A stretch of DNA of 64,000 bases, taken from Ascidia mentula. Its lineage: Eukaryota > Chordata > Ascidiacea > Phlebobranchia > Ascidiidae. Under the pieces are notes generated by a model that was given only the letters and a program-made list of their open reading frames with translations, made no database searches and was not told where the DNA came from. Below, piece by piece: positions 18,802-63,986 of this stretch (within the stretch, counting starts at the first letter, position 1; the number at the start of each line of letters is the position of its first letter). The position numbers and the translations under genes are program-made. The stretch spans positions 12,836,501 to 12,900,500 of the forward strand of contig OX387200.1 of assembly GCA_947561715.1 (NCBI GenBank), read 5' to 3'.

Positions 18802-23528
<4,727 letters not shown>

Positions 23529-44100: not shown

Positions 44101-44650
44101 AACAGCAGTGCACCAATCCTTACCCCCACTTTTCCATTAACATGTGAACCATATGAGGGGTGATCAACCTCATCATCAGAATCCGATGAAGTTGATCCTT
44201 CCCTACTTCTGGTAACTGGAAGTTTCAGCAGTGTAGCTTCATTGTTCAGTTCATCCACACGTTTTTCACGAGCCTTAAGGTCCTAAAGGCGCAGATTGGA
44301 AAAAATAATGTTATCTGATTGATTTGCAGAAAAACATAAACATAAATGTTCTTTTGGCAGCACCGGGCACTGATGTATACAGATAATCCGAACTATTAGG
44401 TTTGGGGTTTGATTTCACTTTATACTCTTCTACCTTCTGAAAGTCATCAAGTTTTTTTTGTAGTTTTTCGACGTGCTCCAAGCCACCTTGTTGATCATTA
44501 TCTTCTTGAAGTTGGTATGATGCAGCTAGTACATGTTTTTCATCCACCCACTTCACCATATCATCACATTCCCGTGCTAAAGCATGTTGCCTGCGGGAGT
44601 GCTCTAGCATGCCATGACGTCTTTTACATTTCACTTTTAGACTCTCATAG
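35109..44650 (-). CDS. SPTAN1: alpha-spectrin exons 23-50 (repeats 9 to EF-hands)
   Basis: Exons in order: 44434-44650, 44124-44282, 43822-43913, 43648-43735, 42621-42794, 42383-42547, 41286-41434, 41008-41132, 40764-40944, 40531-40693, 40123-40254, 39523-39660, 39209-39426, 39034-39141, 38833-38962, 38597-38751, 38130-38319, 37933-38067, 37765-37866, 37520-37656, 37218-37407, 36598-36908, (36484-36501 optional), 36105-36189, 35866-36032, 35606-35806, 35391-35538, 35109-35234. Similarity to vertebrate alphaII is strongest at the C-terminus, where long identical runs occur ([33 protein letters not shown]). Exon 24 carries the insert [19 protein letters not shown] where vertebrate alphaII has its calpain/calmodulin loop. 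Confidence 0.9.
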
Positions 44651-47600
44651 CTATAAAATAAGTTAAATAAATAGGAATGATATCTTAAACAAAGATGTTT
44701 GAGCCTACTCATTTTCAATTTGCTTTTGGCATGCCAAGATAGTTTTTTCATTTTTTTCCAATTCAGCCACTTGTTCTGTCTCATCATCAGTATCTTCCCT
44801 GTTTTCCTGATGTTCATCATCTTCAACTAACTTCAAGCTAGCAGAAGGAACAAATCCCTGCTGTTCCATCCTCTCAACTTTCCACCAATCCTAATGTGAA
44901 AAACAAACAATAAATAAGAGATGGACTAAAAACTAACTGATGGATACAGATTAATGACAATTTTAAACAATTTAAAAAAATATGTCAATCCTCAATAAAT
45001 ATTTTAATTTTACATTTATGATATGTAACCTTATTATACGATGACAAAAGAGTCAGAACTTCATCTTTTTTCACTGTGAGTTCCCTTGGGGATTTTTCAT
45101 GATACTCATGAAGTACAATCACTTTTCTTAGGGTTTCTTCCTTTGCCCACGGACTTTGCAGCTGCAAGAGTATTAACTTGATAACTGTGTATATCAAAAA
45201 TTAAAGAAAAAAAGTTGTACTATATGGACCTTGCACTGTTCAGCTTCTGTCCTTAAGAAGGTGATGTTTCCCTCAAACAATGCAACATCTGCCATGAGGG
45301 CATCGTGTTTCTTAACAAGCGACTCGGCAGAATCCTCATCAGCACCCACATCCAGTGATGATATGATTGCTTGCTTTTCCTAAACAAAAATTATGTGATT
45401 TTTTTAATAAGAGAAAAAAATGACAACTGTCGTTTAACAGTTTAGCTTTGCTTCGAAGAAACAACACTTCGTTCAGTTGATAGTTATTTAAAGTAGTAGA
45501 GCGGCAAAAGAGCAAACATTAGAAACAGAATGTTTGGTAACTGAGATACCATTGTTTGATGTATCTGAGCAGAAAACTTTCCAGTGAAGTAGTTTTGAAC
45601 AAATACTATTATGTATTCTTCGACTTTCCTTTTCAACAATAATGACCTATCTTAAGTCTATATGACAAGTCCACTATCTCAGAAACTAAGGTGGAAATCG
45701 TCAGGACCACTTGCAATTGCAACAGAATGGGAAATGATTACCAGAATCAATTCACAAGTCTATATGACAAGGTTATCATAATGACTCAAACCCATAGCAA
45801 CAATAGATTGCACAAAAACAAAACATACAGTTTCATATCACAGCAACCAAAACAAACTATAAGATAAAAAATGTTTTCCATGTTAAAATGTTCATCATTT
45901 TAAGTCAATGGTCCTCAACTATAGGTCCACAGTGAAAAATAAAAAAACCCACAAGAGTTTTCAAAAAACTAATACCCTTACTGCTGATTGGGCAGATCAG
46001 AAATCATAAAGTGTACTAATGATGTTTTCATAACATTTTGTCCTCTCTTATGGAAGTAGCCAAAAGTTGGAATCAACATCAAAACAGGTCTTTAAATTTG
46101 TCATGGGTGATGTCCCGTTTTTTCATTTATTGCTATGCTAATTTTTTGTGTCCTTTTGATATTTCTTGGGACCACAGAGAATAATTAATCCTGTGGTTCA
46201 CAAACTTAGACAAGTTGAGAAGTCTGTGTATGATTGTCAAAATAATTTAATAAAACCAAAATCGTCAGTAAAACTTGCCAAGGAAGTTCAGATACACAGG
46301 AAAAACAATGGCTTTTCACAGCACCTACTGTACATTACCAATACACAGATGCAATAAACTATGTAGTAAATTACAATAGTATTTACCTCAATCCAAATAT
46401 GAGCATCATTTGCATTTGCCAAATATTTCTGTGCTTCAATAGAATTAAGTAAGTCTTGCTCACGAGTCTCAGCACCTAGTTTCAGCTTTTTCCATTCACT
46501 GACAAGGTTATGTGAATAGGCATCTGCTTGTGTGGCTTCAAAGTGTCCTACATGTAACAAAGGTAATGTAAAAATATCCTGTATAGACTAATATACCAAA
46601 TAAAGAATAGTCACCTTCATCAATAAGTTTGTTGGCTCGAGCACAAACTTCATCAACTTTGGTTTCATGTGCAGATATTTCAGATTGCACAATTTTATGT
46701 TTACGGAACAAATTTTTTGCACTCATATAATCCTTGCCTATGGCAGACACAGGTGGTTACAAGTGGTACAACTTATTAACATTCATTTTTTAAAGTCATA
46801 CTAACCAATGTTTGGTGTTGTGACAATTGGCCATTTGTCTTGTATCCACTCCATCTCATCCTGGATATCTCTAAACAGCTGCTTACTTTTCTGAGATTCC
46901 AGAAGTTTTTCTCTTCTTTTGGCCATTGGAATCTGATTTCAATGTAAGAATGCAACTTTTAACACATGCAACAACAGAAAAGCAGAAGTGTGGAATTCAG
47001 CCATGAAAACCAATTTGCTTGAAACATAATTTTTCGATTCATTCCCAATATTAAACTAAAAATGAACCAATTGACCAGATTGTAGAATTTAATTGGCTGA
47101 AACTAGCTTTCACAATCAATATTCAATATTTGTACCATAGGATTTGTATCATAGGATTTTATCTCACATTCCCTTTTTACTCGATTATAAGCCGCCCTTG
47201 AATGTTGGCCATACGTAAATGTCAAATGTAATGTTTAGTGTGCTACAACAAGTATTGTTACCAAATATACCATTTAAAATTGTTAGTTAAGTTGATAACC
47301 TTGTACCATAAAACGTATCGGCAAGCAAGAATTTTAATGAAACATACAGCTGCCGATAAAATGATGGTGTGACATTAAAAAATGTGAGAATCAATTAAAT
47401 GACAAGTGCTTGAAATTTTCTAGTACTGGATAACTCGGGATGAAACAATCTCATTTTTGTACCATGTTGAACCACTGCAATTTATTTTATTTTCTAAATT
47501 TATATTTTGGTTTTAGTTTTAAGGCTTGTACATACTTGTGTGGGCTGTTGTTCGTAACAACTAACTGGCCTACCAATTCTTTAAATATTTGTCAGCAATC

Positions 47601-50600
47601 CTAAAATAGTTAAACCGCATTGCCCTATAATGTTGTTTAGTTGCAGTTTCAGAAAAAATTTTTAAATACAGCCATCGCAAATAAAATAAAAAATCTGCTG
47701 GTCCCGTGGTCGGTAATGTCTAAATTATACTATATCATGCTCACTTGCAAGCTGTTGTATTTTTCAACAAGGTCTTCCTGCTTGTGCATAATTTCCACAG
47801 AGTTAAAATGATTATTTGCAACATGCTGTTTTGCCAAAATTTCTATTCCATCAACACGTTCCTAAATACCAAGTACCATGTTAATATGAACAACATGTAT
47901 AACATATAGAGAAAATATACCTTATGAACTTGAACATCAATTTCTAACAGTTGATGTTTTTTTATTAAAGTGGCAACCGATGAAACATCAACACCCAATT
48001 CAACAGAAGAAACTGCAAGTTTGGTTTCTTCAGTCCAACGAAGTAGTTCAGACACAGAACGATTAAAAACTTGCTCTTCACATGCATTTGACAATTTGCT
48101 TCCTGGTATATAAATAATAGATGTGATGACAGGAGTCGAATACATGTTGAAAGATAGAATTCTCAGTTCGCCACTGTTTCCAATGAAAGCTTTAAATGTT
48201 ATTTAATTGTTGTTGCAAAGTATCGCTAACAAAAACATGTGTGCTGTATTCATGTTTGAAATCTTACGAAATAGACTATAAATAGTCTTGGCCGTTTGGT
48301 CAGCAAAGTCGGCTGGCTGATAGTCTGTCTGCAGCTTATACACCAGACTATAAATGTTTCAAAAAGTACTTTATACCCCTCTCTTTACAATCGTTGAGCA
48401 ACTTTTGCCATTTTTCTTCCACTTCAGTGGCCTCAGTCTGAATTTCATCATTGGCATAATGATTAGCGGCAACAAGTGACTGGGCATCATTCAGACAGGA
48501 GTCAATGCGACCTTTACTGGAAAATACTTCCTCCTCAAACACTTTATGCCTTTGCAATTTTCCTCTGATATTTATTGGATCCTATTGATTTTTTCAAGAA
48601 AATTTGGCTTTCGATCATATTATAAATAAAAGTATTTCATCATCATTGTCAATTTACCTGATAGGAATCATCATTTGCTGTTTTTCCTTTTTCTGCCATC
48701 CATGAACACAAGTTTCTTGCATCCCGCTGGAATGACCTAAACCTATTGGCATCATCCAAAGTTCTGGCCCTCTCTTGTATACATATTTTTAACAACTCAT
48801 GTCGCTTCAGCAACTAAACATCAAACAAAGGAAAAAGTTAAGATGAACATCACACAAGGGAAAAAACATTTCAGTAGGGTTTTGAACCACAACATACATT
48901 ATCCCGCCGAAAACTAATTTCTTCTGATGCATAGTGGCCTCTGTCAATAAGTTTTGTTGCCACTTCATCTACAGAATTAATTTTTTCCTCTTGTGCTGCA
49001 GCAGATTTGCTAAAGTCATCGTGCTTTCTTATAAGGGTTTGAACAGAATCCAATGATTCCCCAAGATCATCTTGAGCAATTAAAATTTCCTAGAAGTACT
49101 AAATTAATACAAAATCTAAATTCTATACCTTGTACATTATTACCTGTGTTGCAAGCCATGATTCTGCCTGCTCAGCATCCCGGTTAAATAATGCCAAATG
49201 AAGGCATTGGTCATACAGCGCCTGTCGTTCTTCCCATAACTTTAACAGTTGTTCATGTTTTTTCATCAATTCATCAACTTTTTCTGGTATAATACCTGGT
49301 GCTTCTGAAGTCCTTGTTTGAATGCTAACAGACATGTTACAAATATTTGGCAACATATTGGACAAAAAACATTTGTGGTCAATACTAAAACAACAACAAC
49401 ATTACAATCACAGGACAACTGTACCAAATAACTGCAGATCAAGTTTGGTTTATTACTTGTTTTTTTCTTTTTCATTATCTGAATCGGAGGAAGACGATGT
49501 TGAAGATTTTCTGGAAGATGCAACAACTTCAACAACCACAGTGACAGCAGCTGGGTGCCTCTCAGTGATTAATCTGTTGCCAAATTCGTCAGCATGTCTA
49601 AAGCTGCTTTCCTGAGCAGCAATCTTGCCCTGTATATGCATAAACTTAATTTTCTTCAGTACACAAGACAGTTTATAGACTAACTCTGTGTTCTTGGTGT
49701 TTGTCAACAAGCGCCTCTGCACCACACACATCTGTTGCAAGCTCATTAGCCAAAATACATGATTCTGTTTCGTCACACCAGATAAGCAATTCCTTGCTTT
49801 CAGCCAGAAAGCTCTAAGCAAGTAACTCTTCTTTTTAAAAAATACAATATATTCTCAAAAAAAAAAAATATGATTAATTAGAAAGTAATAATGATTAACA
49901 ATGTTTAGGTTAACGTTACCAATAAAATACTTTTCCTTCATCAAATTATTATTTCAATAAAGAAAAAAGTTTGGAATGCCCTAGCTTACACCATGATATA
50001 ATTTTGGAGATATTTTTTGTGGGGTGGTAACAAGTGCCAGTGCCATAACCAACTTAGTTAAATAGGTGTAACTCTTTTGTTGAATTGTTCAATTACATTT
50101 CACAAAAAGCAAAACTCACTTGCAGATCGTAGCTTTCTTGTAACCGACGTTTTCTCTCATTCATCACAGATTTGACACAGTCCCAATTGTCAATCATGTC
50201 TTTGCACTGAATAGAAACTGAAAGACTGTGTTCCTTTTCGATTCTTGCAGCTTCTTCGGAAAGTTCAGAAACCTGTACACCACATAAAAAGATCCCAAAA
50301 TAAATGAAACTTTAGAGAAATAGTGTTTAAGAAAAATGAAGAAGCTGTAAGAGCATACAAGTTTGCAAATTACAGTGCTAAAGTTAGCAACAGTCCCAAA
50401 TCCGTAACCCAGGTGGCTGTTACTTGAGGTTTCTAATTAATTGCCATCAGGCCAGTTGGCAATTGGCCCACAAAAAATGCATTTCAGCAAATGAATAGCT
50501 CACAGCAGCATCCCTGTCAGAGATGTAACAAAACCTAATAAATTAAAAACACATCAAATTCCTGATAAACTGTGTAAGTTCCAGAATTACATCAGGCTAA

Positions 50601-53003
50601 AGCTACATAAAAGAAACTCTCCAAATGTTACAGTCAGTTGAGATACCAATCTAAGGATGTATAATATATATCGAGAAATATTAAATAAACTTATTAACAT
50701 TGTTCTCACAAAAATTATCTTAAATCTTATTTGCCAAGCTTAACATTGGTCCCAAAAATCACAACCACATTGTCAGGAAATCATATGATTCACCACACCT
50801 TTTCTTCTAAAGCAGCCAAATCGCGTTCCACACTTTCATGGATTCTTTGAAGAGCTTGCACAGAACTTACATCTGACCCAACATCTTCAGAACTAAGGCT
50901 TACTTCTTTGTCTTTCATCCAAGATATTGTTTCTTCAACATCTCTACAATAGATTTTATGACATATTTGTAGAAAGGTTGTTAAAACAAACCCAAATGTT
51001 TTATTGGAATATACCTGTTAAATTTGTGAACTTCAATAGAAGTTGTCAACATTTTATTTCGGGTTTCAGCTTGATTGTTTAGATTTTTCCATGCTAAATT
51101 TACTTCTTCCTGTTTGCTCTGAATATGTTCAGATTCTGGATGTTTTTCCTCTGTAACCTAAGAAAGAGCAATTTGAAAGTTCACTTAACTACTTTTTTAA
51201 CCAAATATGCAGTCCACCATTTTTTCAGCCTCATCATTGAGATCTTTAATTCTTTCACCAAATCCTTGCAGTTCACTTAAAAAATCATCAAATTTTCCAT
51301 ATAACATATTGACATGATCAATATCGTTTCCTGTATCAGTTGAAGTTACAACCAACTCCTGCAAAGCAAATTAAACACATTTTTAAAACAATTTTGTGTT
51401 TTTTAATGATATCCTACTTTGTCATTAATCCAATAAAGTGTTTCATCGCACTTTCTAGAAAAAGTCACCCATGACTTTGTTTGTCGAAGTCGTATGCCTC
51501 GTAGTTCCAATGCCTTGATCAATTTATCCCATAATTCATGAAGTTCCGACAGGCGGTTCTGTTGCAAAAATTTGATAATAAATTAATCATAATCATACCT
51601 TGAGAATTACAACATCTAGCTTGTACACTGAATATTAAAATTGTCATCGCAACCATAAAAAAAACCTACAGAATAATACTTTGAGAGGTATGCTTATTTT
51701 TATTTGATATGTGATAGGCTTAGAAACTATAATAATGACAGATATTCTTTTACTTTCGTTGTTGACTGTTGCTTTTTGTAATAACACACAAAACAAGTGT
51801 ACAAATATATTAAAAAAAGATTCTATTTGACAAGACCAATGTTTCCGTTCCCGAACATACCTGGATTTTACTTTCAGTATTTGGCCTTTCAATACCAATG
51901 GCTTTGCCTTCTTTATTCAACTTTGACAATGATGCCACATTGGCATTAACTTCAGCCTCAAGAGCACTGTGCTTCTGTATTCTTGCCTATACAAATTGTT
52001 TTTGTTTGTTTTTAGTTTGGACAACTAAAGTTGTTGTATTTGCACAATTAACTTTTTTATATAATATACCCAAAAAATGCATATAAGTAATATCATGCCT
52101 TCGCATAGCAAAGTAGGATCGCCCCACTGCGCAGGCCCTTTATATTTCAGCCCTCGTATTCTGATAATAAGGTTCACAGACTTCGCAGCCAAGGTATTAC
52201 AGCCAAGCTGGATTAGCCACTTCTCCCGACAAGTCAGAGCAAGATCTGGAAAATCAAGCTTCCGGTGAATTTACAACCTTGGGCTAACTAGGCCCAACGT
52301 TCTACCAACTGAGCTACAGGAGCTCATTGGTTTCACAGGGTATATTGTGACCAAGGTTGGGCCTTGTTAGCCCAAGGTTGTGAGTTCCAACCTCACTGGG
52401 AGCTTGATTTTTCAGATCTCGCTCCCACTTTCAGGAGAAGTGGCTAAATCAGCTTGGCTGCAAAGCCTGTAAACCGTATACCCCCAAAATTTAGCAAATA
52501 CACTCATAGTCATATCCAGGGGGGTCTGGATTTGTAATGCTCGATTAACCTTAATTTACAGTAAAAAAATCAGACAATAAAAAAAATTAATACCCCCCCT
52601 TTAAAAATCCTGGATATGCCAACACATGCAAATCATATTGCAAAACCAGTGAAACATAAATAAAAAATTACACTAAAACAACACACCTCCAAATTTGTTG
52701 CATCTTTAGAACTGTCATCATAAGCAGCTTGAGTTCTATCTAATATCCATTTTTCAAGTTCCATAGCATCCCTAATGAACTGTTGAAAACCCAGGGCATT
52801 CAACAACCCTTCCCGACGTGCAACCAATGCATCTTTAAATGCCTGTCCACCAACCAAACATTTATTGGCAATATGCTGATACAACCTCAATAAAACAAAA
52901 CAAGCCTTACCTTATACTGTGACAGAATGTGTTCCCGTCTTAACTTGATGTCCTCCACAGTTTCAAGTTGAACAACTGATGTTGCTATATGTTCAGTAGC
53001 CAT
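35109..53003 (-). CDS. SPTAN1: alpha-spectrin (non-erythroid alphaII type)
   Basis: Forty-nine coding exons join in one frame of about 2497 residues (human alphaII 2472); exon positions are in the partial entries. Alpha-spectrin pairs antiparallel with beta-spectrin and crosslinks actin under the plasma membrane. The start [10 protein letters not shown] leads into the partial first repeat that forms the tetramerisation site ([15 protein letters not shown]). About twenty three-helix repeats of about 106 residues follow, then an SH3 domain ([15 protein letters not shown]...DWWKVE...GFVPSASLK) inserted in the ninth repeat. The C-terminal EF-hand domain ([18 protein letters not shown]) ends [11 protein letters not shown]. 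Exon joins preserve frame throughout. Two serine/acid-rich inserts are unlike vertebrate alphaII. The symbol is the vertebrate orthologue's; invertebrates usually have one such gene. Confidence 0.96.
36484..36501 (-). other. possible 18-base cassette exon in spectrin
   Basis: On the minus strand a polypyrimidine tract and CAG precede 18 bases encoding CYLLD, followed by GTAACT. Human alphaII reads ETRTYLLDGSC at this place, and the neighbouring exons join in frame without these bases. If included, the junction codon with the next exon would read TGA. It may be a relic or a regulated cassette. Confidence 0.45.
39774..39797 (-). repeat. fragment of the 'gctgcagacag' element in a spectrin intron
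   Basis: 'gctgcagacagatggccact' continuing 'gttt' matches 22659-22682 in PSMC1 exactly, then diverges. It is a truncated copy. Confidence 0.55.
44709..53003 (-). CDS. SPTAN1: alpha-spectrin exons 1-22 (N-terminus to SH3)
   Basis: Exons in order of transcription: 52911-53003, 52687-52842, 51861-51986, 51418-51558, 51218-51358, 51015-51157, 50799-50943, 50120-50272, 49685-49813, 49457-49629, 49144-49324, 48898-49089, 48658-48813, 48377-48581, 47921-48102, 47745-47861, 46806-46932, 46615-46737, 46387-46547, 45230-45379, 45030-45161, 44709-44890. Exons 21-22 encode the SH3 domain with its conserved ALYDY-like ([13 protein letters not shown]), WW (DWWKVE) and FVP(S/A) segments. Exon 10 ends in a serine/acid-rich insert ([12 protein letters not shown]). 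Boundaries were set by GT-AG, by frame and by similarity, and could be off by a few bases. Confidence 0.9.
52130..52325 (-). mobile_element. tRNA-derived SINE, copy A
   Basis: On the minus strand the element starts 'agctcctgtagctcagttgg', a tRNA-like head with box A at 52305-52316 (TAGCTCAGTTGG) and a box B-like GGTTGTAAATTC at 52267-52278. An unrelated body with 'gcttgattttccagatct' and 'gagaagtggctaatccagct' phrases follows. It lies in spectrin intron 2. It is not a working tRNA, since the anticodon and acceptor arms do not fold properly. Confidence 0.75.
52350..52480 (+). mobile_element. tRNA-derived SINE, copy B (5'-truncated)
   Basis: The plus strand carries 'gttagcccaaggttgtgagt' followed by 'gagcttgatttttcagatct' and 'gagaagtggctaaatcagct', the same phrases as copy A in opposite orientation. 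The tRNA head upstream of box B is mostly missing. The two copies face away from each other, 24 bases apart. Confidence 0.7.
52511..52618. mobile_element. short foldback element in spectrin intron 2
   Basis: It begins 'catatccagg' and ends 'cctggatatg', with C-rich 'accccccc' just inside the right end. The wording of the right end recurs near 2043-2075. It is a likely MITE fragment. Confidence 0.45.
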
Positions 53004-53026: not shown

Positions 53027-56000
53027 TAACAAAAAAATTACAATTTGCTGCTGTTATGCAACCCAAATTTAAGCAAGCATCTGGCAAGCAAGATGAAAAA
53101 GAAATATTCTTAGCATTGCTTTCAAGCAAGGTAATGTTTGTTAATCTTATAAAGAATATTTTTTTCTGAGGTTATGTGGTACACTATTTTCTTCGCAATA
53201 ATTTGTTTTTGCAATGCATAACAAAAGCAAAAATATTTATTGTTATAGGCAGAAAAAAAAACTATGGTGCATAAACCATCGTAAAACTAGTGATCATACA
53301 ATCAATAAAAGCACTTTAGTTTTTAGTTTTTTCGCTTCACAATGCAATTATGTTAACCAGCTTTTTAAGAGATTAGTACAGACATGTGTGTTTGTGTGAA
53401 TCATCACAATAAATAAAAAATGCAGCTGCAAAAAAATCAAGTAAGAATTTCAGTGACCCAGTAATTGCAAATTGGGCTTTGTATAGCCATATGCAGGACC
53501 TGGACCAAAAAATAAGCACACTGGTTTTTATGTGACACAGTAGATAAGAATTATGATTTATTTGGGAAAATACTACTAAACCGGATCACAAAGTTTTCGC
53601 CAAACTTGCTCCACATATAAGTCAAACAGCAATAGGTGTGTAAAACAGCAATATGTGCGAATTTTAATGAATATGCGCGAACAGGTCAACCACCTGTTAT
53701 TTTTGGTTATGTATTTGAGTTGAAATACTACACGAAATTGTAGCGTTAATATTCGAACAGATTTCTATGTTACATAGGCTTATATGTGGATCAAGTTTGG
53801 CAAAAACTTTGTGACCCGATGTAAAAGTACCTTCCATTTATTTGGTGGTATTTCCAATTTATTGATTGTTGACATGACCATCTAAATAGTCTACCACTGT
53901 TGTTTTAATCATAATGAAAAAACTAGTTTCTAAAAATGAAGCACACCTCTATTTGCCATGACACTTTAATTGCAAATAAGAAAGTGTGTCAACCAACCAT
54001 GAATATATGTTGTTTCTTAATCAAAGATTGCAACACTTTTATCATAACTTTTTTAAGAGCAGGCAAATACGTCCAACAAATAACAGTTAAATATGAAAAT
54101 TATAAAAAAAAGGCTGCAAACACATACAAAACTTACCAAAAACAGACACATGAATTAATACAAAAAAGGAATTGGGAGCCTAATACTTGTATTGTATCAT
54201 GCAACAACCAACAATGTTTTGCCTTTATTCTGTACAAACTAAATCCCAACATACTGGACATAAATACCAACAAAACTGCAATGATAATAAATGGAAAACT
54301 GCACTATTCTCTATGTAATAAACAAAATAACGACCTGGAAAAAGTTAAAAAAGGGCATTTACAATCTTCGTTTAAAACTATTACAAGTGAAACGAAGAGC
54401 TGCGCCCTTGCGTTGCGCCGGTGCTTTCGGGGTGCGCCCTATTTATATCCTGTGACGTCACAATCGTTTAACATTTCTCTTTCTGAACAAACATTCTATA
54501 GATGGCCTAAAACTTTCTGTTTTGCAACCACCTTTGAAGATTTCTTTACACATTTCTACTAACATACAGGAAACCATTTGTGTTTTATCGTAGTGTGCTA
54601 ATTATACACATATATGATAGGTCCGTAATGGTATGTCTACTGATTGTCTCGGTCATGCATGGATGCATCCGCTCTGCTCTCTGTAGGCCGGCGTTAGAGC
54701 ATAAACACCAAATGCATTTGTGTACTTGACTTTATGCATTTATTTACAATTAAACGCATGTAGCTCTCCAGCCAACCGTAAAACTCGCAGTTTAACGACA
54801 AAGCGAGTCTTGTATCATTCCTCAATGTAGTTTTATCATTTTTAATTGCCTCAACAAACATTCGTTCATTTGTTCATCAATTTAAAAATGGCTTGTTACG
54901 ATCTTGTGATTCAATCTAATGTGCTCCACTCTTGCACGCAACAGAGATCAATCCTTATGTCATCTTATTCCACGCATTGCGATGAAATTTTTCGCTTACG
55001 TCAGACAGATTTTATTACCTACCTAAGCTACGATATAGTTGTACTTTTTGCCCGGTCAACACGCCTCTAAACGAGTCTACATATTGACCGCTTCGGCTGT
55101 TGAGCGAGGCAGCTAAAAAATCAATCGAATCGACTTTCTGTACTCCGATTCTGCCTCAATACGCAACATCTGAATGACTTGTCTCATTAAATTTTGATAT
55201 CGTTATATTGCGAGTTTTGCGAGTAGGCTATTACATAAATATTATATTGCGACTGTTAACTAGCATAAATACTACAGCAGCCTGATCAATTTCCATGTTC
55301 CTCTATTTTGGTGTGATGAAGAAAAAAATCTCAAGCCCACTGAAGTTTTGCCTTGTTAAATCACAAAAGATGCATTCGGATTATTCTGCGTCACAAAATG
55401 ACAAAGTGACGTGCGATTTCGTATGTTGTGCGATACTCCCTTTGGACCCCAAAAATATATGTTTACTTTTTACATCAACTGCAATTGAATTGGTGCGAAC
55501 TGCATAGTTTTGCCCCAATAAATATTACTTTTTATTTAAATGTTCTGTTCATTGCATTTAGCCCCTGGAAGTTTAACGAATTTATATATTTTTTAAGTTT
55601 TTTAGGTACACGTTAGACATATACCCTAGACTAGTTGAAAAGCTCTTGACTTCTAGCGCAGACAATCAAAGAACCAAAGGCTAGAAACTAGGAACAACCA
55701 TGTTCGTAATTATGGTTTACGCACTAGGTAGCACTTACGAGAAAGTTGTGCCTGTCAAACGATACGAAGGTAAAAGGCTAACATAAAATCGTAACTTTTG
55801 CGCACGTCACAGTACATTTGTTTTTCCCGAACTGTCACTGGAAACATCATGTCTGGATAAATTTTGATAAAGCCTGAGAAAGGGCAAAGTTGTTTGCCAC
55901 ATTACAATTTGAGATTATATATTTAAGATAGCCGCACAGTGGTCGACATGTTTAGAAATTGAGCATATATTATTCTCTTTCTTCATCTCATCCCGGTTGT

Positions 56001-56240
56001 ATCACATCCGGTCCGGATGACGTGTTGTGCTTGGGTCTTGATCACCAACGGATGTTTTACTGTTTACAAAAATAAACCCCTGAAGTCCGCGTTCAGTTCC
56101 GGTTTGACGCCCTGGCTCCAACAAGCTAGTAAAGTTCTGTGCAAACATGCGGATTACCTGTAGCGAAATTTTGTTTTTTTCGCATAATCGCAACCGACTT
56201 CGCATAATCAATAGGTTTGACTTCACAATCTTCAGAAATC
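53027..56240. other. intergenic between spectrin and VPS39
   Basis: Three kilobases without a recognised gene. A 208-codon open frame at 53936-54562 (plus) is rich in K, N and I, has no family motif and overlaps the promoter-like site at 54438-54460, so I do not call it. The remainder is AT-rich and shows no clear repeats. Confidence 0.4.
54438..54460 (-). promoter_or_regulatory. possible spectrin promoter: CRE plus TATA box
   Basis: Reading the minus strand, TGACGTCA (54453-54460) is a perfect cAMP-response element palindrome, followed six bases later by TATAAATAGGG (54438-54448). A GC-rich stretch unlike the surroundings follows. If used, transcription would start near 54410 and lead, after a 5'-UTR intron, to the spectrin ATG. 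Confidence 0.35.
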
Positions 56241-56258
56241 GGGCAGGACTGTTGCATG

Positions 56259-56331
56259 ATGCACGATGCATACACTGCACTGCCTGTTTTAGAAAGATTT
56301 CCTGTGAGCATTCAATCTATTGCATGTTACG
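56259..56331 (+). CDS. VPS39: VPS39 first exon, upstream copy (1a)
   Basis: Seventy-three bases encode MHDAYTALPVLERFPVSIQ and SIACY, ending with a G before GTGAGC. Vertebrate VPS39 begins MHDAFEPVPILEKLPLQI, so this is clearly a VPS39 N-terminus. The frame and the leftover base fit the downstream exon at 61161 exactly. A closely similar copy is at 60453-60525. An additional ATG stands directly before the start. Which copy is transcribed cannot be told from sequence. Confidence 0.75.
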
Positions 56332-56439
56332 GTGAGCAAATGCCTATGAAATTTTAATTGTGGAAAGGTTATTTGAAATGAACAACTGTAACCAGCGCAT
56401 GTTGCATTGAATATCTTAGGAATAGAGGTTGCAAATGTT

Positions 56440-57420
56440 TCAACCATAATCAATGGATTTGATGTCACAATCCTGTAGGTGAAGATTGGTTAAAAATGCG
56501 TACATAGGTTTTCGCTGACGTATGACGACAATTTGTTTTTTACTACAACATTGCAAGGGGACGCCACGCAGTCTCTATTCGATTTGATCTTTTATTTGAG
56601 TAATTTGTTTTCATAGTAAAGCGGCTTCCTTTCAAGCGCGTGTGGCGCGATTTGGTCAAATCAGTGAAATATGCCCGAAACCGGCCCAAGACAAATAAAA
56701 ATTGGCACGAAGGCACGACAATTACAGAACTTAAATGTGAATTAAGACATGGGAAACGTGTTTAGAATTGGCCCGTGCAAAAACGCGGAATACAATCATC
56801 ATTGAGATGTAAAACTGGTACCGGCAATGAATTAATGATATTAAAGCTTACTTTGTCTGACAGCCGGAAGTCACTCATCTTTCCAATCGTATCGAATTGT
56901 TTTTGCACATCTATCTTGAGTTTAACCACCTAAGTTAAAGGCAGTAAGTATTGACATAAAAACGTTGCAGTTTTATATCGTACGATTTAGAATGCAAAAG
57001 CGTACGCCAGGGGTGACGACTTTTAGTATTAAAGGCCCAAAAAATCTCCGCGGGACACTCTTTGGACACTCCTGTCGTACGCCTTAGCGCCTAATTGTCA
57101 CTTTTGGTGCTTGGTAATTTTGTTCCTCAACATATTTCGCTTTGCCCAAACTAACTTTCATCTAAATTCTAAACTAGTGCATTTTCAGCCAATCCTTGTT
57201 GCAATATGACGCCTGACCAATTAATGATACAACATAAAAGTAAATCTTATCTTTTCAAATAGCACAAAATAATAGAATGAATCTAAAGTAAAGTGAGACC
57301 TGCCTTTATAGCCGGAAATTTAATTATCATTCCGGCACGAGAATGTCGTGCATGTAATTTCACCGTAAGAGAACTAATTGGGTAGCAGCGCCCATATTGC
57401 CAAACGATTTGCTGCAAGCG
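56440..57420. other. VPS39 upstream region, no certain gene
   Basis: There is a possible minus-strand exon at about 56852-56931 (VVKLKIDVQKQFDTIGK..., bounded by AG and GT). A dispersed repeat is at 57105-57230. The rest shows nothing recognisable. Confidence 0.35.
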
Positions 57421-57429
57421 TCGGAATAG

Positions 57430-58055
57430 CCTTCGTCGGTCTGAAAATCGGCAATAAGGGATTGTGGTCAGTCATCAAAATAAATTTTCGGCCGAAAAGA
57501 TACTGAAAAAACTTGCGAATAGCAAACACCATTGCCAAAGCTTACTTTTGGATCTGGCTGTACCTCCTCTGGCATTCAGTCCGCAGTGTTTTAAAAATAT
57601 TTGCAATGGGCTTTTCACTTCCGTCCGCGAAACGATGAAATAAAACTGCACCAATTCCTACACTAAATGCGTCACACGCTATTCCAATCGGTAGGCTTGG
57701 TTCAAAAATATGTGAGAACATTGTCTGATGAAAGAAGATGTTTCAATTGCTTGAAAGGCTCTTGTTTTTTTTGCCACCTCCAAGTAACTGCCTTTTTCGT
57801 TGGTGGCATTTTTATGACGACTTTTACTTCCTTTGGCAATACTCCCCATAATGAGAAAATGCCAAAGGTATTCGACGCTTTGCTGTGCGAATTTGCATTT
57901 CTCCTATCGGCAACGCAGACCTTTTTCATCAAGTCGAAGCAAACGACGCAAATTTTGCAAATGGTGGATGTCGTCTAAAAATACCGCTACACCAGGTAAA
58001 CCATGTGTGGTGTCGTTTATTAACTTTTCGACTTTTCGAAAATGAATGGCAGAAC
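57430..58055 (-). mobile_element. broken Ty3/gypsy pol fossil (RT end and RNase H)
   Basis: Reading the minus strand, the end of a reverse transcriptase (VAVFLDDIHH, the catalytic YLDDI-type box, near 57980) is followed by the connection and RNase H regions (PFKQLKHLLSS, SLPIGIACDAFSVGIGAVL, KPIANIF, RKFILMTDHNPLL). The order and spacing are those of gypsy-type pol. Gag, integrase and LTRs were not found. It has a few breaks and is an old partial copy. Confidence 0.75.
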
Positions 58056-58084
58056 ATTTTGAAGAAGAAAAAATAGTGTTAGAT

Positions 58085-58150
58085 CAGTGGTTCTTAACCC
58101 GGGTTCGATTTCGACGTTTCTGGGGTTCGAAGAAGGTCCAATGAACGTTT
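58085..58150 (+). mobile_element. left terminus of a hAT-type repeat
   Basis: 'cagtggttcttaacccgggt' followed by 'ttctggggttcgaagaag' matches the style of hAT non-autonomous termini common in animals. No matching right end was found, so this is a fragment. Confidence 0.5.
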
Positions 58151-58922
58151 CAGTCATATTTTTTCAAAAAAATAAGTTGCAGAAACAAAAATATTGAATT
58201 TCGTGAGTTAAGTAGGAGGATTGATTGTAACCATTAAATAGATTCACTGTGATGTAACAATCAACGTGACTACTATTTGTACTCATAGTAATTGCTTGGC
58301 ACAGTATTTTGGGCACTTGCGTGAATTTGAAAATCGTTCGTAGTCATGGCTGACGTAAACAATCACGATATAAAATTCCTGTTGCTGCCAGGCATATTGC
58401 AATTAAAAATGTAAACAATCACATACATAACGTCATTAGGCTTCAGAAAAGGACTTTTCAAAACATGTTTTTGAATGCTGTGGTGCAATCAAAACACCAT
58501 TGGCATATTATGCTATAAAGTTATAGCTGATTTATGACAATGCATAATAATATGCGTTACAAAATTCGTCCAAAGTTAATATTTTTTTACATTTTCATAA
58601 ATTTTGTGTCAATCTATGCATCTTGCCAAAAAATTATCGAAATCCCACGATTAACGGCAGAGTTAGTTACGGGCGTTCAAAGTTTTGTCGACTAGCGTCT
58701 CTTTGGTCCTTAAAAACACACTTAAGGTTGATATTTAAGATCAGATAATAACATGAATTATTAGTACTACTAAGTTTTCTCACATAGATTGCACAGTTTT
58801 TCTGGTATGAGAGAACACAGTTTTTCGGGTATGATTTCTGCGTTTATAGACAAGTTTAATATGTTTGGAAAGCTTGATTTACGTGCTTTCATTTGTTGGT
58901 AAATTGAAAGTGGGATCATAAC

Positions 58923-59795
58923 CAGGGTGTCGATTTATGCCTTTTTCGCCATTCCAAGTGTTCGACACGCGACGCCACTGTTCGACACAGGTGCCGTGAA
59001 TAAATTTTAAGTTACCGATATACAATACCACGAACAGACCAACGTTATTGTTATCTACCAAAGTCCATAAATTGAATTACTTAATTTAGCCTAACGTATC
59101 GGTCTTGCAACATTCACATCGATCTAACTAGTTTTCTTTTTTCGAAGTTCTGACGGCAACAAATTTTCTATTAACATGTTGTAAATTTTTTGCCGTAGAT
59201 GCTAGTGGCAAAAGCGGCTCGAAGACGTTGGTACCAGTATAAGTCGTTTGATTTTAAACCACAACCAAATATTTGGGAAGAAATTTGTATTTCGAGTCAG
59301 TATCAAACAACAGCATTTAACCGAACGGTTACGTAGTGTTGAAAACTTAATGGCATTATCGTTTGGAAAACCCCACCCAAGATAAATTTGACTGTTTAGA
59401 TGGCTAAATAAACGCAACCGCAATAAATTTGTGGACAAAATCCATGCAAAAACCAGCGCAGTCAGCACTTGCTAACGTTCAGCGAATAAGCGCTAGCGCA
59501 TTAAACTAACCATTGTTCCGAACATGGAGCATTGTTACCGAACATGTGGCATTGTTGCAAAACAAGTACTATTTTTCGTTCAATCGAAAAGAGACTAGCC
59601 TCTACACATGCAAGGTTTTTAATTGTTTTGTCGTTATTTCAACGTGTGTATTCTAAACTTATGTAAGTACAAGAATCATGTAATCGAAATATGGTCGTTC
59701 TCATGCGTTAGTTACCAGATACGACATTTTTACTATTCGACACGCACGACAATTTTTCTCAAGATGTTCGACCGCAATAAAAAATCGAGGCCCTG
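58923..59795. mobile_element. non-autonomous hAT element with intact 8-base target duplication
   Basis: It begins 'cagggtgtcgattta' and ends 'aaaatcgaggccctg', an imperfect inverted pair with CAGGG/CCCTG tips. Directly outside, 'atcataac' stands on both sides (58915-58922 and 59796-59803), the eight-base duplication of hAT transposons. At 873 bases it has no transposase; the 88-codon minus-strand frame inside is unrecognised. It contains the 'gcattgttaccgaacatg' repeat shared with 1640-1790. Confidence 0.8.
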
Positions 59796-60107
59796 ATCAT
59801 AACTATGAAAAACGTTATTGAAGAAAAGTCGATATTTTTTCATGTTTTCGAAACATAAATTCATATTTCTGCAATTTTCCCATCGAATTTTTTAAATATT
59901 TTAATATCCTTTGAAAGAGTTACGCGCGTAGAATGATTTGCGCTAACATTTCACTGGGCAAATCTCTCTTTCGCAACTTATGACATACCGGTAATACGCA
60001 TATGATATTCATAACCGATTATGAATATGTTTTTTTACATAATATTGATATCGTTAGAAAGGTCAGCCTATGATCTATTAGGCCGGGTCCACACTCACGC
60101 TTTGCGC

Positions 60108-60171
60108 CGGCGGATTCTTTGTTTGTTTCATTATACGCCGGCGTATAATGAAACAAACAAAGAATCCGCCG
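60108..60171. repeat. perfect 64-base palindrome
   Basis: The arms 'cggcggattctttgtttgtt' continuing 'tcattatacgcc' are followed immediately by the exact reverse complement, with no loop. The preceding 'ggccgggtccacactcacg' (60081-60099) suggests it is the core of a foldback MITE, but the matching outer end was not found. Confidence 0.85.
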
Positions 60172-60239
60172 CTACCTCGTAGGTCGGCCGAGTAACCCGC
60201 GTTCAAAGTTTTGTTTACTGGTTTTGTCAATTTTTTTTG

Positions 60240-60452
60240 TCAACTAACATCCCTCTGGTAATTGATGTGCCTCACTACTGCAGTTTGGGATTTCAGACAT
60301 TTTTAGAACATATTTCACACGTTTCCACACTAGACCGAAATATTTATATGTGGAAGTATGCGAATCAAATTCAACCCACCTAGGCTACATTTTTTCCCCT
60401 GAGAAACTGAAGCATCTGGATTATTTAGAGCACCAGGCAGGACTGTTGCATA
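60240..60452 (+). other. sequence before VPS39 exon 1b
   Basis: AT-rich non-coding. Similarity to the region of exon 1a begins only at 'ggcaggactgttgcat' (about 60437), 16 bases before the ATG, so the two copies have different upstream DNA. Confidence 0.45.
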
Positions 60453-63400
60453 ATGCACGATGCATACATTGCACTGCCTGTTTTAGAAAGATTTCCTCTG
60501 AGCATTCAATCTATTGCATGTTATGGTGAGCAAATGCCTGTAAAATTGTAGGTGAAAAGTTATTTAAAATGAACAACTAGAACCAGTGCATGTTGCATTG
60601 GAAATCTTTTAGAGTAGAGTTTGCATATGATCCAGAAGTATTCAGGCTCAACTTGCGGATATTACTGCTATTACGGCTATTACTGATATCATAGTATGCT
60701 AAGAAGTGTACTATGCTGCTATTACGACTTTTACGAGGGATTTTCCACAAACTATTACTCCCTCGTAATGGCAGTAATAGCCGCAATAGCCGAAATAGTC
60801 GTAATAGCCGTAATAGCCGTAATAGTTGTAATAGCTGTAATAGCCGTAATAGTCGTAATAGCCGTAATAGCCGTAATAGCCATTTTAGCAACACCGGTAT
60901 ATATATCCCTAACAAAATCTTGTGGTGATGCAGACAAAAAATGTGGACCTTTTTTGAAAGAAGTTTGCTTTTTTTAATCATTGCAACAGCTAGAAGGCCA
61001 GCTATAACATACCAAACAGACATATCATCATAATGATATAAGTGATTCTACTCTGGAAATGGATTAATTGCAAGTTTGGTTGCCCCAATAAAGTTTCTTG
61101 TTAATTCAATATATTTCCATGAATATTTGTGTATTGTATAATATATAATATTCTGGTTAGGAGAACCAGCCTCAAGGTGTTACTCGAACTCTGACAAAAC
61201 CGATAACGCGACACTGCTAGTTGGTACTAAAGAAGGACAGCTACTTATTTACAAGGTATGTAGTGTGCCATGTTAATTATTATTGCCTGTTGAGGTTTTT
61301 GCAAGGCATGAGTGTGACAAGCCTCTCCACATAATTTTATATGGTTGCAGGTTTGCACAACAATCTAGCCTGGCAAAGCATAAAAATAATGAAACACTAT
61401 ATTAATTGGTATCCTCATTTACTGGCAAACACTTTTGTTTAACCAGCGATAAAAAAAAATATATATTATACACATTATAAAGTGGTTATGGCCAAGAAGG
61501 AGATAAATTGAAAACATGTGGTAGCAATCTTAAACACTGCACAATTAAAATATTATGATATTGCATTCTGCACATAATATAAAAGACAACAAAAGTGAGA
61601 ATTATATACATAACATGGACAGTGATCGCTTGTCCCCATTCATCAAAGATAAATATTTTACCTGCTAAATATGTGTCTTTGTGCTGTAATATTGTGCTTG
61701 GCCTATTTTGCATGTTTTTAAGGTGCACAGAAATCTAAAAAATTCCAAGCAAATTGAAGTAAATTTGGAAAGATCCATTCGCTTTTTCTCAAAACGACCA
61801 ATACAGCAACTCTATGCCTCGCCTGAAGTAAAGCTCATCATAAGTCTATCTGATGGGATTATATCGCTTCATGATATAAATACATTTCAATTGGTTGCAT
61901 CCATGCAAAGGACAAAGGGAGCTACAATTTTTACTGCTGATTTAGAGGTATCAAACTATGCTCTTTAAATTTTGAAAACAATTTTTGCTAACATTTTATA
62001 TCTAGGAACAAATATCTTCTACTGGTGACTCTGCATTTGCTATGAAACTGTGTGTTTGCATAAAACGAAAACTACAATGCTACTTCTGGAAGAATCAAGA
62101 ATTTGTTGAACTACATGTAACAGTATTTGTGTAGTCGTAGTTCGTGATTGTGTAATTTATTTTTCGTAAAGGCTGATGTTTCCTTACCCGAAATACCCAA
62201 AACCATTAGTTGGTGCAAAGACTCTATATGTGTTGGATTGAAAAGAGAATATGGATTGGTTAAGTTGGATGGTAATGAATCAAACTTGATAGAATTGTCA
62301 CCAACAGGTGAGTTAGTTGAAAAATAAATGCCAGTGATTAATTTTTTTATTGTTGTTTGTGCATATGTAAATTAAACGTCTCATGTATATGTAGGAAAGC
62401 TTATGGAACCAGTGATTGGTTGCCTTGATAAACAACAACTTGTGCTGATGAAAGATGAAACAAGTATATTTGTCAATAGTGATGGTGATCCTACATACAA
62501 GCATTCATTTACTTGGTCAGATATTCCATCAAGCATAGGTAAGGCTTACAAAATCAAAAATTATAATTTCCAAAACATGTCCACAGGGCAAAGCTTAGCA
62601 AACTTATTTCACCGCATGGTGTAAGAATAACATTTTTGAATTGAAACAGCGTAATGTAATGTAACCATTAAAACCTAGCATCAACTAAAACCCAGAACAA
62701 ACCACGTCCATTCCTTTTAATATACCCACCTATATTGTTCAAGTGCTGTGGTTGATAACTTTTTGCTGTATGGCAAGTCTGACTGTAACTCTGTTGTACA
62801 TGTCAGTTGGCTTTAAAGCAACAGTGCTAGCACTACCTTCCACAATCATATATATAGTATTTAAGCATGTAACTATTGAGAAATTATCAGTTTTTGGAAC
62901 AACTTCAGGGTAAGAGATTAAAAGCATATTTTCAGGCCTTACCATTCGAGGTTTTATTGCTGAAAATTCGAGGTTTTATTGCTTGTCCAGTAACAATCAG
63001 TAATATTTTAAGTTTTCATCGTCTCCAGCAGGAATGTTAATATGGTTGAAGTCTGTTCTCAACTCAATGTTTGCCATGTAACATCAAATGTGTATGTGTA
63101 CAACAAATAAAAACAACAAATTTTTAGATGCCCAGCCCCCATATTTAATTGGGATTTTACCAAAGTTTGTGGAAGTACGAACAGTAGAGCCTCGGCATTT
63201 GATACAGAGTATTGATCTACAAAAACCACGAATATCCACAGTTTGGAGGTAAACTAATAAATAAAAAAGAAAGAAATTTAGTAGTTTTATTGCAGCTTTT
63301 TGTTTTTTGTGTATTGTAGGCATTGGATGTTTGTAGCATCTGTCACACATGTGTGGGCTCTTCTTCAATTACCATTGTCAGAACAAATACATCAACTCTT

Positions 63401-63986
63401 AAAGGATAGAGAATTTGAGCTTGCATTACAGCTTGCAGTATGTGTGTTTACATTTAACTAAAATAAATTATTTTCACTGAAAGTGGTTTGCCAACCTAAC
63501 CATTTGGACTTATTTGATCTAGAAAAGATCAATAGAAGATGATGAAGAAACAAGATTAAAGCAAATTCAACACATTCACACTTTACATGCATTTGAACTT
63601 TTCTGTAAAAAAAAATTTGAAGAATCTTTGTCGAATTTTTTAAAACTCAAAACAGGTTTGTGGATTTAAACATTTTGTAGGAACTGAAAAACAACTATTG
63701 TTAGAGCTGCAGACAGGGTGTATACACGCACTGTTTCGACCTGTAAGGTCTCATCAGTGCAGCTGTTGATGTGGCACTGTCTGCAGCTCTAATTGATTAT
63801 TATGGCTCTTTTGCGCATACAACTATTGTTAGTTTTTGTGTAGATCCTGCACAAGTAATAGGCCTTTTTCCGGAACTTCTTCCAAGTGAATACAAAAAAA
63901 AGTTGATTTATCCATATGATCCTCCCAATCTAAAAGCGCTTGAATTGGAAAAGGGTTTGCTTGCACTTATTGAATTTTTAACAGAG
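60453..63986 (+). CDS. VPS39: VPS39/Vam6 HOPS subunit, N-terminal part (runs off the window)
   Basis: Exons: 60453-60525 (or 56259-56331), 61161-61255, 61723-61947, 62006-62116, 62172-62307, 62395-62538, 63128-63248, 63320-63437, 63523-63655, 63844-63986, continuing beyond the edge. All introns are GT-AG and the frame is kept. The product is a subunit of the HOPS tethering complex that binds Rab7 and drives late endosome-lysosome fusion. The N-terminus MHDAYIALPVLERFPLSI and the blocks TLLVGTKEGQLLIYK, KGATIFTADLE, LQCYFWKNQEF, PPYLIGILPKFVEVRT, LLKDREFELALQLA, HTLHAFELFCKK and LFPELLPSEY match vertebrate VPS39 in order, covering the CNH (beta-propeller) domain and the start of the clathrin-repeat region. 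Confidence 0.95.
60655..60885. repeat. 9-base tandem repeat with inverted copies in VPS39 intron 1
   Basis: About 12 units of 'gtaatagcc' (some with c, t or a changes) run at 60771-60882. The reverse-complement form occurs upstream at 60661-60684 and 60714-60727, and 'ttacgaggga'/'tccctcgtaa' form a short stem between them. The repetitive open frames read from it (NSRNSR-type and IAVIAV-type) are artefacts. Confidence 0.8.
63705..63818. mobile_element. 114-base element with 14-base target duplication in VPS39 intron 9
   Basis: 'acaactattgttag' occurs immediately before (63691-63704) and after (63819-63832). The inserted piece starts 'agctgcagacag' and contains 'tgtctgcagct' in inverted form near 63779-63789, as well as 'ctgtttcgacct', 'aaggtctcatcagtgcagct' and a short hairpin. 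A target duplication of this length is typical of LINE-driven insertion, which suggests a tiny SINE-like element. Relatives are at 22655 and 39774. Confidence 0.75.

What the first reader, a model, noticed from the sequence alone, without database searches (positions are those of the whole stretch)
56240..60640. Two open copies of the VPS39 first exon, 4.2 kb apart
Positions 56259-56331 and 60453-60525 each encode the VPS39 N-terminus, end with the same leftover base and have the same GTGAGC donor, so either can splice to the exon at 61161. Within the 73 exon bases I count three differences, two of which change an amino acid (T to I, V to L). Similarity extends about 20 bases upstream and 110 bases into the intron, then stops. 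This looks like a duplicated first exon with two possible promoters. The unit holds a hAT element and a gypsy fossil between the copies.
Basis: partly seen in the sequence, partly recalled or inferred. Interest (0 to 1): 0.75.

Follow-up and report, generated by a model that had tools for sequence, protein, structure and literature searches.

The report
Inserted second copy of VPS39's first exon
In a sea squirt, the first coding exon of the housekeeping gene VPS39 occurs twice; the downstream copy looks like the original and the upstream one like a small piece of the gene pasted in 4.2 kb upstream, where it may or may not serve as a spare start.

Summary
56259-56331 and 60453-60525 are two open copies of the first coding exon of VPS39. 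They differ at 3 of 73 bases, keep the same phase and donor, and are the only two matches found in the assembly. By its contig lengths the genome is Ascidia mentula (chromosome 4, kaAscMent1.1).

I read the downstream copy as native and the upstream copy as derived. The copy-1 piece (56231-56444) is bordered on both sides by a 28-bp direct repeat (24/28), as after an insertion with target-site duplication. Copy 2 has no such borders. Copy 1 is also a CpG-poor island in CpG-rich DNA, whereas copy 2 sits at the edge of VPS39's CpG-depleted body, roughly like the starts of 5 of 6 Ras-family genes examined. A second promoter is not needed, and nothing shows one.

Against a dead copy: the exons diverge less than their introns (likelihood ratio about 11-15 for constraint on both, sensitive to the intron rate). 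The genome also carries the Ciona-type spliced leader, so an upstream exon could be used without its own promoter. Use of copy 1 is open; I put detectable use at about 40%. RNA-seq from the same specimen (ERR10378036) would settle it.

The parts
56203..56230 (.). left 28-bp direct repeat bordering copy 1 (putative target-site duplication)
   Evidence: 24/28 identical to 56445-56472; 0 of 5000 shuffles with 50- and 80-bp flanks, 2 of 5000 with 100-bp flanks; 0 of 5000 with 100-bp flanks
56231..56444 (+). duplicated 214-bp segment at copy 1 (exon, 5' leader, start of intron)
   Evidence: aligned to 60424-60637: 185 matches, 25 mismatches, 8 gap columns; outermost bases align weakly
56259..56331 (+). 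VPS39 first coding exon, copy 1 (MHDAYTALPVLERFPVSIQSIACY + 1 base); in-frame ATG also at 56256
56445..56472 (.). right 28-bp direct repeat bordering copy 1
   Evidence: two weak relatives elsewhere of 56449-56511
57243..58066 (-). gypsy-like retroelement fossil
   Evidence: multi-copy; RT_RNaseH pieces E 3e-9 and 1.3e-6
58838..60260 (.). interspersed repeat with a 64-bp perfect palindrome (60108-60171), interrupted by the hAT-like element
58923..59797 (.). hAT-like non-autonomous element, 8-bp target duplication ATCATAAC; 39 other matches of about 500-870 bp among the 40 candidates scored, of 1122 first-look candidates
   Evidence: sequence; 'hAT-like' rests on the 8-bp duplication and end sequences, by eye
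60441..60525 (+). native first exon with leader; coding part 60453-60525 (MHDAYIALPVLERFPLSIQSIACY + 1 base)
   Evidence: CpG profile
60653..60897 (.). foldback/minisatellite repeat in the intron after copy 2
61161..61255 (+). VPS39 exon 2
61723..61947 (+). VPS39 exon 3; one match in the genome

Best explanation
Copy 2 (60453) is the native first coding exon of VPS39. Copy 1 (56259) arose when about 214 bp covering that exon and the start of its intron were copied into DNA 4.2 kb upstream, leaving a 28-bp target-site duplication on either side. Retroelement, hAT-like and foldback repeats also lie between and beside the copies; their order of arrival relative to the copying was not established. 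The inserted piece carries a start codon, a donor in the right phase and acceptor-like AGs just upstream, so it is a ready-made alternative first exon. It would be used only by a transcript that starts upstream of it and is spliced-leader trans-spliced at 56235 or 56246, or that simply begins at it, skipping copy 2. Inclusion of both copies is ruled out by frame. SHOWN: the two copies, phases, donors, bordering repeats, CpG contrast, the spliced-leader 16-mer in the genome. INFERRED: direction of copying, target-site duplication, methylation as cause of CpG loss, spliced-leader trans-splicing in this species. NOT SHOWN: any transcript. I put detectable use of copy 1 in mRNA at about 0.4.
For: Two matches genome-wide. 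28-bp repeats abut the copy-1 segment, 24/28. No shuffle of 5000 reached the score at 50- and 80-bp flanks; at 100 bp 2 of 5000 and 0 of 5000. None of 1466 background positions reached 24/28 in a seeded scan, which can miss pairs and did not sample copy 1's own pair. Copy 2's flanks show nothing beyond chance in 6 tests. The repeats differ at 4/28, like the intron copies at 14/102, so the ages agree. Copy-1 segment: CpG o/e 0.41 and TpG+CpA 1.71; 0 of 1637 overlapping windows of the same size in the surrounding CpG-rich DNA was as extreme on either measure (intron part alone 6% and 0.4%). Copy 2 and body: o/e 0-0.5 apart from the foldback repeat. Ras-family starts: 5 of 6 with upstream sequence turn CpG-poor between 250 bp before and 500 bp after the ATG; copy 2 with repeats skipped turns at 250 bp before; copy 1 is at 1.12 or above from 250 to 2000 bp downstream. 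The hAT-like element between the copies kept 32 of 38 majority CpGs, so its site was probably not long methylated.
Against: The right-hand repeat lies at the edge of a stretch (56449-56511) with two weak relatives elsewhere, so the bordering repeats could be pieces of an old repeat rather than a target duplication; I could not read those two places. The exon's CpG and TG content is partly fixed by its code. One search hinted that similarity resumes after the foldback repeat (1 of 2000 shuffles in near windows, but 435 of 1000 in wider ones; 357 of 3000), which would favour a longer tandem duplication. Copy 2 turns CpG-poor earlier than 4 of the 5 fitting Ras genes; Ras locus L052 is CpG-rich throughout, L065 climbs again to 0.75-0.82, and the open frame near 73 kb is CpG-poor from 1 kb upstream. 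Low exon divergence argues that copy 1 is not simply dead.
Confidence: 0.6

Rival explanations
1. Both copies are used and selected: a true alternative-first-exon pair, with copy 1 driven by its own upstream promoter or chosen by spliced-leader trans-splicing. (This concerns use and is compatible with copy 1 being the inserted one.)
For: Exon differs at 3/73, intron at 14/102 plus indels. With a neutral copy 1 the chance of an intact exon with at most 3 differences is 0.02-0.03, with both constrained 0.29-0.65; likelihood ratio for an intact exon with exactly 3 differences 11-15 when integrated over the intron rate. Both copies keep ATG, frame and donor. Spliced-leader 16-mer present.
Against: The ratio falls to 0.5-3.4 if the neutral rate is 0.05-0.08; a simpler binomial test gives P=0.25 for one neutral copy. 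The low-divergence block reaches 14 bases into the intron (difference list), as a conversion tract would. The DNA after the copy-1 segment shows no CpG depletion. No RNA evidence.
Confidence: 0.35
2. Local tandem duplication of the exon region (200-315 bp or more), copies later pushed apart by repeat insertions; no target-site duplication.
For: About 2.4 kb of the 4.0 kb between the copies is identified repeats. Weak collinear similarity beyond the foldback repeat.
Against: Does not explain the abutting 28-bp repeats or the CpG-rich sequence directly after copy 1, 56438-57242. No clear exon-2 remnant between the copies (best tblastn E 0.14).
Confidence: 0.22
3. Copy 1 is the original start and copy 2 the derived one; the 4-kb interval is an intron bloated by repeats.
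For: Upstream of copy 1 is nearly unique CpG-rich DNA, and Ciona promoters have high CpG scores (PMC3333190, passages).
Against: CpG-poor, TG-rich composition of the copy-1 segment within CpG-rich DNA; no depletion downstream; bordering repeats at copy 1 and not at copy 2.
Confidence: 0.12
4. Assembly artefact: two haplotypes of one exon joined in tandem.
For: Ciona savignyi is known for high polymorphism (PMC1868934, abstract start in the listing); the copies differ by about 13%.
Against: Flanks on neither side match; different repeats beside each copy; the matching published assembly is HiFi at 74-fold, QV 64.9, BUSCO duplicated 1.2% (PMC11109543).
Confidence: 0.04

Closest known systems
[quoted passage not shown] two passages of PMC7101342 seen)
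   Same: Two similar first coding exons, each joined to shared exons 2 onward.
   Different: PGM1's two exon-encoded segments are about 51% identical and both isoforms are established; here 22 of 24 residues are identical and no transcript is known.
Templated sequence insertion (TSIP classes 1 and 2; PMC5110952, start of abstract and passages)
   Same: A short piece of distant sequence copied into a new site; class 1 has a target duplication of at least 5 bp.
   Different: No poly(A) at the end of the insert (class 1 has it), yet a target duplication (class 2 has none); old and diverged, not shown to be polymorphic.
SL trans-spliced genes of Ciona (PMC11155486: abstract, section 12 and passages)
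   Same: Single 16-nt leader, same letters found here; trans-splicing favours the first acceptor, so alternative 5' exons can share one promoter.
   Different: Use at VPS39 of A. mentula untested.

Membership tests
Alternative first-exon pair (PGM1 type) | two similar first coding exons in the same phase, each able to join exon 2 | tested here: met
Alternative first-exon pair (PGM1 type) | both exons found in mRNA | not testable with these tools
   no RNA data on hand
Alternative first-exon pair (PGM1 type) | separate promoters | tested here: inconclusive
   only indirect CpG evidence, pointing to copy 2
Insertion with target-site duplication | direct repeats abutting the insert, absent at the donor | tested here: met
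   but see the two weak relatives of 56449-56511
Insertion with target-site duplication | empty site in a relative or other haplotype | not testable with these tools
   no related ascidian genome held; the request for the two weak relatives in the own genome did not complete
TSIP class 1 (LINE-mediated) | poly(A) at the insert's end | tested here: not met
   sequence 56425-56444
VPS39 gene | CNH, Vps39_1 and C-terminal zinc finger domains | tested here: met
   PF00780 1.4e-21; PF10366 2.2e-11, PF10367 3.3e-6
SL trans-spliced gene | SL joined to the first acceptor in mRNA | not testable with these tools
   only the SL 16-mer and AGs upstream of each ATG

The most novel reading that the evidence does not exclude
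A DNA-level insertion of a gene's own first exon, with a target-site duplication, created a working alternative first exon upstream of a housekeeping gene, made usable without a new promoter by spliced-leader trans-splicing, and both copies have since been kept by selection.
Probability: 0.25. Interest if true: 0.55.

Novelty: new member of a known kind. Interest (0 to 1): 0.32.

Why it matters
If copy 1 is used, the locus is a datable case of how a new 5' exon is born by a small self-copy, and of spliced-leader trans-splicing sparing it the need for a promoter. If it is not used, it is a warning that an intact, in-phase extra first exon can be an inert insertion. Either way CpG depletion gives a sequence-only hint of which of two candidate starts lies at the germline transcription unit.

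Tried and rejected
Haplotype mis-join: rejected because neither pair of flanks matches. A 4.2-kb duplicated unit: rejected, no further clear shared sequence and no clear exon-2 remnant between the copies. Copy 1 carried by a multi-copy transposon: rejected, 2 genomic matches only. Pyrimidine content upstream of the possible acceptors did not separate the copies (8, 13, 9 and 9 of 18; the last value was taken one base off, the AG being at 60428). The solved-structure search gave one fungal CNH-domain protein and no significant N-terminal alignment. The first CpG-retention and Ras start-codon runs used minus-strand loci unturned and are replaced. Exon boundaries were one base off for exons 2, 7 and 8 and were corrected; the end of exon 6 (62537 or 62538) was not re-run, and the translation breaks there. 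One search's hint of longer similarity was not reproduced with other windows. Paper searches in the held library: VPS39 with 'alternative first exon' (1 paper, on tumour splicing) and VPS39 with 'ascidian' (1 paper, on another subject) listed nothing on this gene in ascidians; I read neither. The match of Leu16 in copy 2 to human VPS39 is recalled, not tested.
Full report
WHAT AND WHERE. The window is G000:C67:12836501-12900500. Contig C1 is 27,920,005 bp, exactly the longest scaffold of Ascidia mentula kaAscMent1.1, and the other eight large contigs agree with its chromosome table to within 0.01 Mb (PMC11109543, first of three parts of the text read). C67 (22,722,200 bp) is chromosome 4. The held copy has 79 contigs and 195.8 Mb against 95 scaffolds and 197.0 Mb in print; I do not know why. 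The genome holds the Ciona spliced-leader 16-mer 2157 times (1091 + 1066) and its reversed control never, so spliced-leader trans-splicing is very probable here, though I saw no RNA.

THE GENE. Exons 56259-56331 or 60453-60525, then 61161-61255, 61723-61947 and on to about 67.2 kb (by eye) code for VPS39: CNH domain E 1.4e-21, Vps39_1 E 2.2e-11 and C-terminal zinc finger E 3.3e-6. The third exon's protein has one match in the genome, so VPS39 appears single-copy.

THE TWO COPIES. They align over 197 columns at 87.3% and are the only two matches in the assembly. Exon differences: T6I, V16L, one silent. Copy 1 has an extra in-frame ATG three bases upstream. Both donors are GTGAGC, both leave one base. 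Joining copy 1 to copy 2 through the AG at 60440 gives a frameshift and a stop after 52 residues, so only one can usefully enter an mRNA.

COPY 1 LOOKS INSERTED. Sequences 56203-56230 and 56445-56472 are 28-bp direct repeats (24/28) that abut a 214-bp segment aligning to 60424-60637 with 185 matches, 25 mismatches and 8 gap columns (the outermost bases on both ends align weakly). No shuffle of 5000 reached the score with 50- or 80-bp flanks; with 100-bp flanks 2 of 5000 and 0 of 5000. A seeded scan of 1466 positions along 73.9 kb found no pair as good; it can miss pairs and did not sample copy 1's own. Copy 2's flanks gave nothing in 6 tests, with and without the foldback repeat. The repeats differ as much as the copies' introns do (4/28 and 14/102). 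Caution: 56449-56511 has two weak relatives elsewhere that I could not read, so the repeats may be older pieces.

CpG EVIDENCE. In Ciona, bodies of broadly expressed genes are methylated and promoters are not; in one transgene the unmethylated zone reached about 0.8 kb up and 1 kb down of the start; repeats inside methylated introns become methylated; and domain edges do not track the first methionine (PMC3827831, passages). Here CpG o/e is 1.15 in 54900-56241, 0.44 in copy 1 (56247-56437), 1.21 in 56438-57242, 1.0-1.8 in most of the repeat-rich interval (0.60 in 58709-58924), 0.48 in 60261-60435, 0.17 in copy 2 and 0-0.5 in the VPS39 body apart from the foldback repeat (1.56), of which 100 bases are 99% identical to another copy and so probably young. 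As a yardstick I looked at 18 of the 30 fetched Ras-family loci (157 matches in all) and took, by eye, a start codon in 7. Of the 6 with upstream sequence, 5 fall below 0.62 by 500 bp after the ATG (L043 from 250 bp before; L065 climbs again to 0.75-0.82), L052 is CpG-rich throughout, and the seventh (L067) has only 147 bp upstream. An open frame near 73 kb (proteasome-like by eye) is CpG-poor from 1 kb upstream. Copy 2, repeats skipped, turns CpG-poor 250 bp before its ATG, earlier than 4 of those 5; copy 1 fits none of them, being at 1.12 or above from 250 to 2000 bp downstream. The hAT-like element (59000-59797 compared) differs 5.5% from the majority of nine relatives but kept 32 of 38 CpGs, 4 decayed (11%); relatives decayed at 3-26%. 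So the interval has probably not lain long in a methylated body.

IS COPY 1 ALIVE? Exon 3/73 against intron 14/102: Fisher P=0.04. Simulations give likelihood ratios of 11-15 in favour of constraint on both copies over the uncertainty of the intron rate, but 0.5-3.4 if the true rate is 0.05-0.08. Gene conversion would look the same. A neutral copy would still be open 16% of the time. These results argue against a simply dead copy and are the main reason I leave use of copy 1 at about 0.4.

SPLICED LEADER. In Ciona 9850 of 12,397 non-operonic genes examined had trans-splice acceptors, preferentially at the first functional acceptor, and single-promoter and two-promoter models are both open (PMC11155486, passages and section 12). 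Each copy has AGs a few bases upstream of its ATG (56235 and 56246; 60428 and 60440), so either could take a leader. Untested.

INTERVAL. Gypsy-like fossil 57243-58066 (RNase H pieces), repeat 58517-58708, repeat 58838-60260 with a 64-bp palindrome and the nested hAT-like element. The genome searches score only the best 40 candidates, so repeat counts are lower bounds and rarer repeats may have been missed.

VERDICT. A real duplicated first exon, most likely a small templated insertion upstream of the native one. It is a new member of a known kind, of modest interest unless transcripts show that copy 1 is used.

Noticed in passing
G000:C1:15239666-15297871: Spliced-leader 16-mers in interrupted head-to-tail arrays with 719-720-bp spacing; 2157 copies genome-wide, of which the first 100 places (all on C1) were listed, some isolated.
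   Followed up: partly
L017, L018, L019 at 1501: Three of four SL 16-mers read share the same neighbouring sequence on both sides, unlike L020, whose downstream sequence has a GT and ACTTTTGG as an SL RNA gene might; SL-bearing repeats may have spread.
   Followed up: partly
60108-60171: 64-bp perfect palindrome (two 32-base arms, no spacer) inside the repeat 58838-60260.
   Followed up: partly
60653-60897: Foldback element made of TAATAGCCG-like units; 100 bases are 99% identical to C70:1056396-1056495.
   Followed up: partly
22675-22707 and 63729-63761: 33-base near-identical pair (94%) 41 kb apart.
   Followed up: no
7294-9519: Minus-strand 741-aa open frame that looks like a retroelement gag region; label by eye.
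   Followed up: no
about 36600-52900: Minus-strand exons that look like spectrin repeats; where profiled (52-54 kb) the DNA is CpG-poor and CpG rises from about 54 kb; label by eye.
   Followed up: no
L021, C67 about 12909500-12910300: Long uninterrupted frame resembling proteasome subunit beta-1 downstream of VPS39; label by eye.
   Followed up: no
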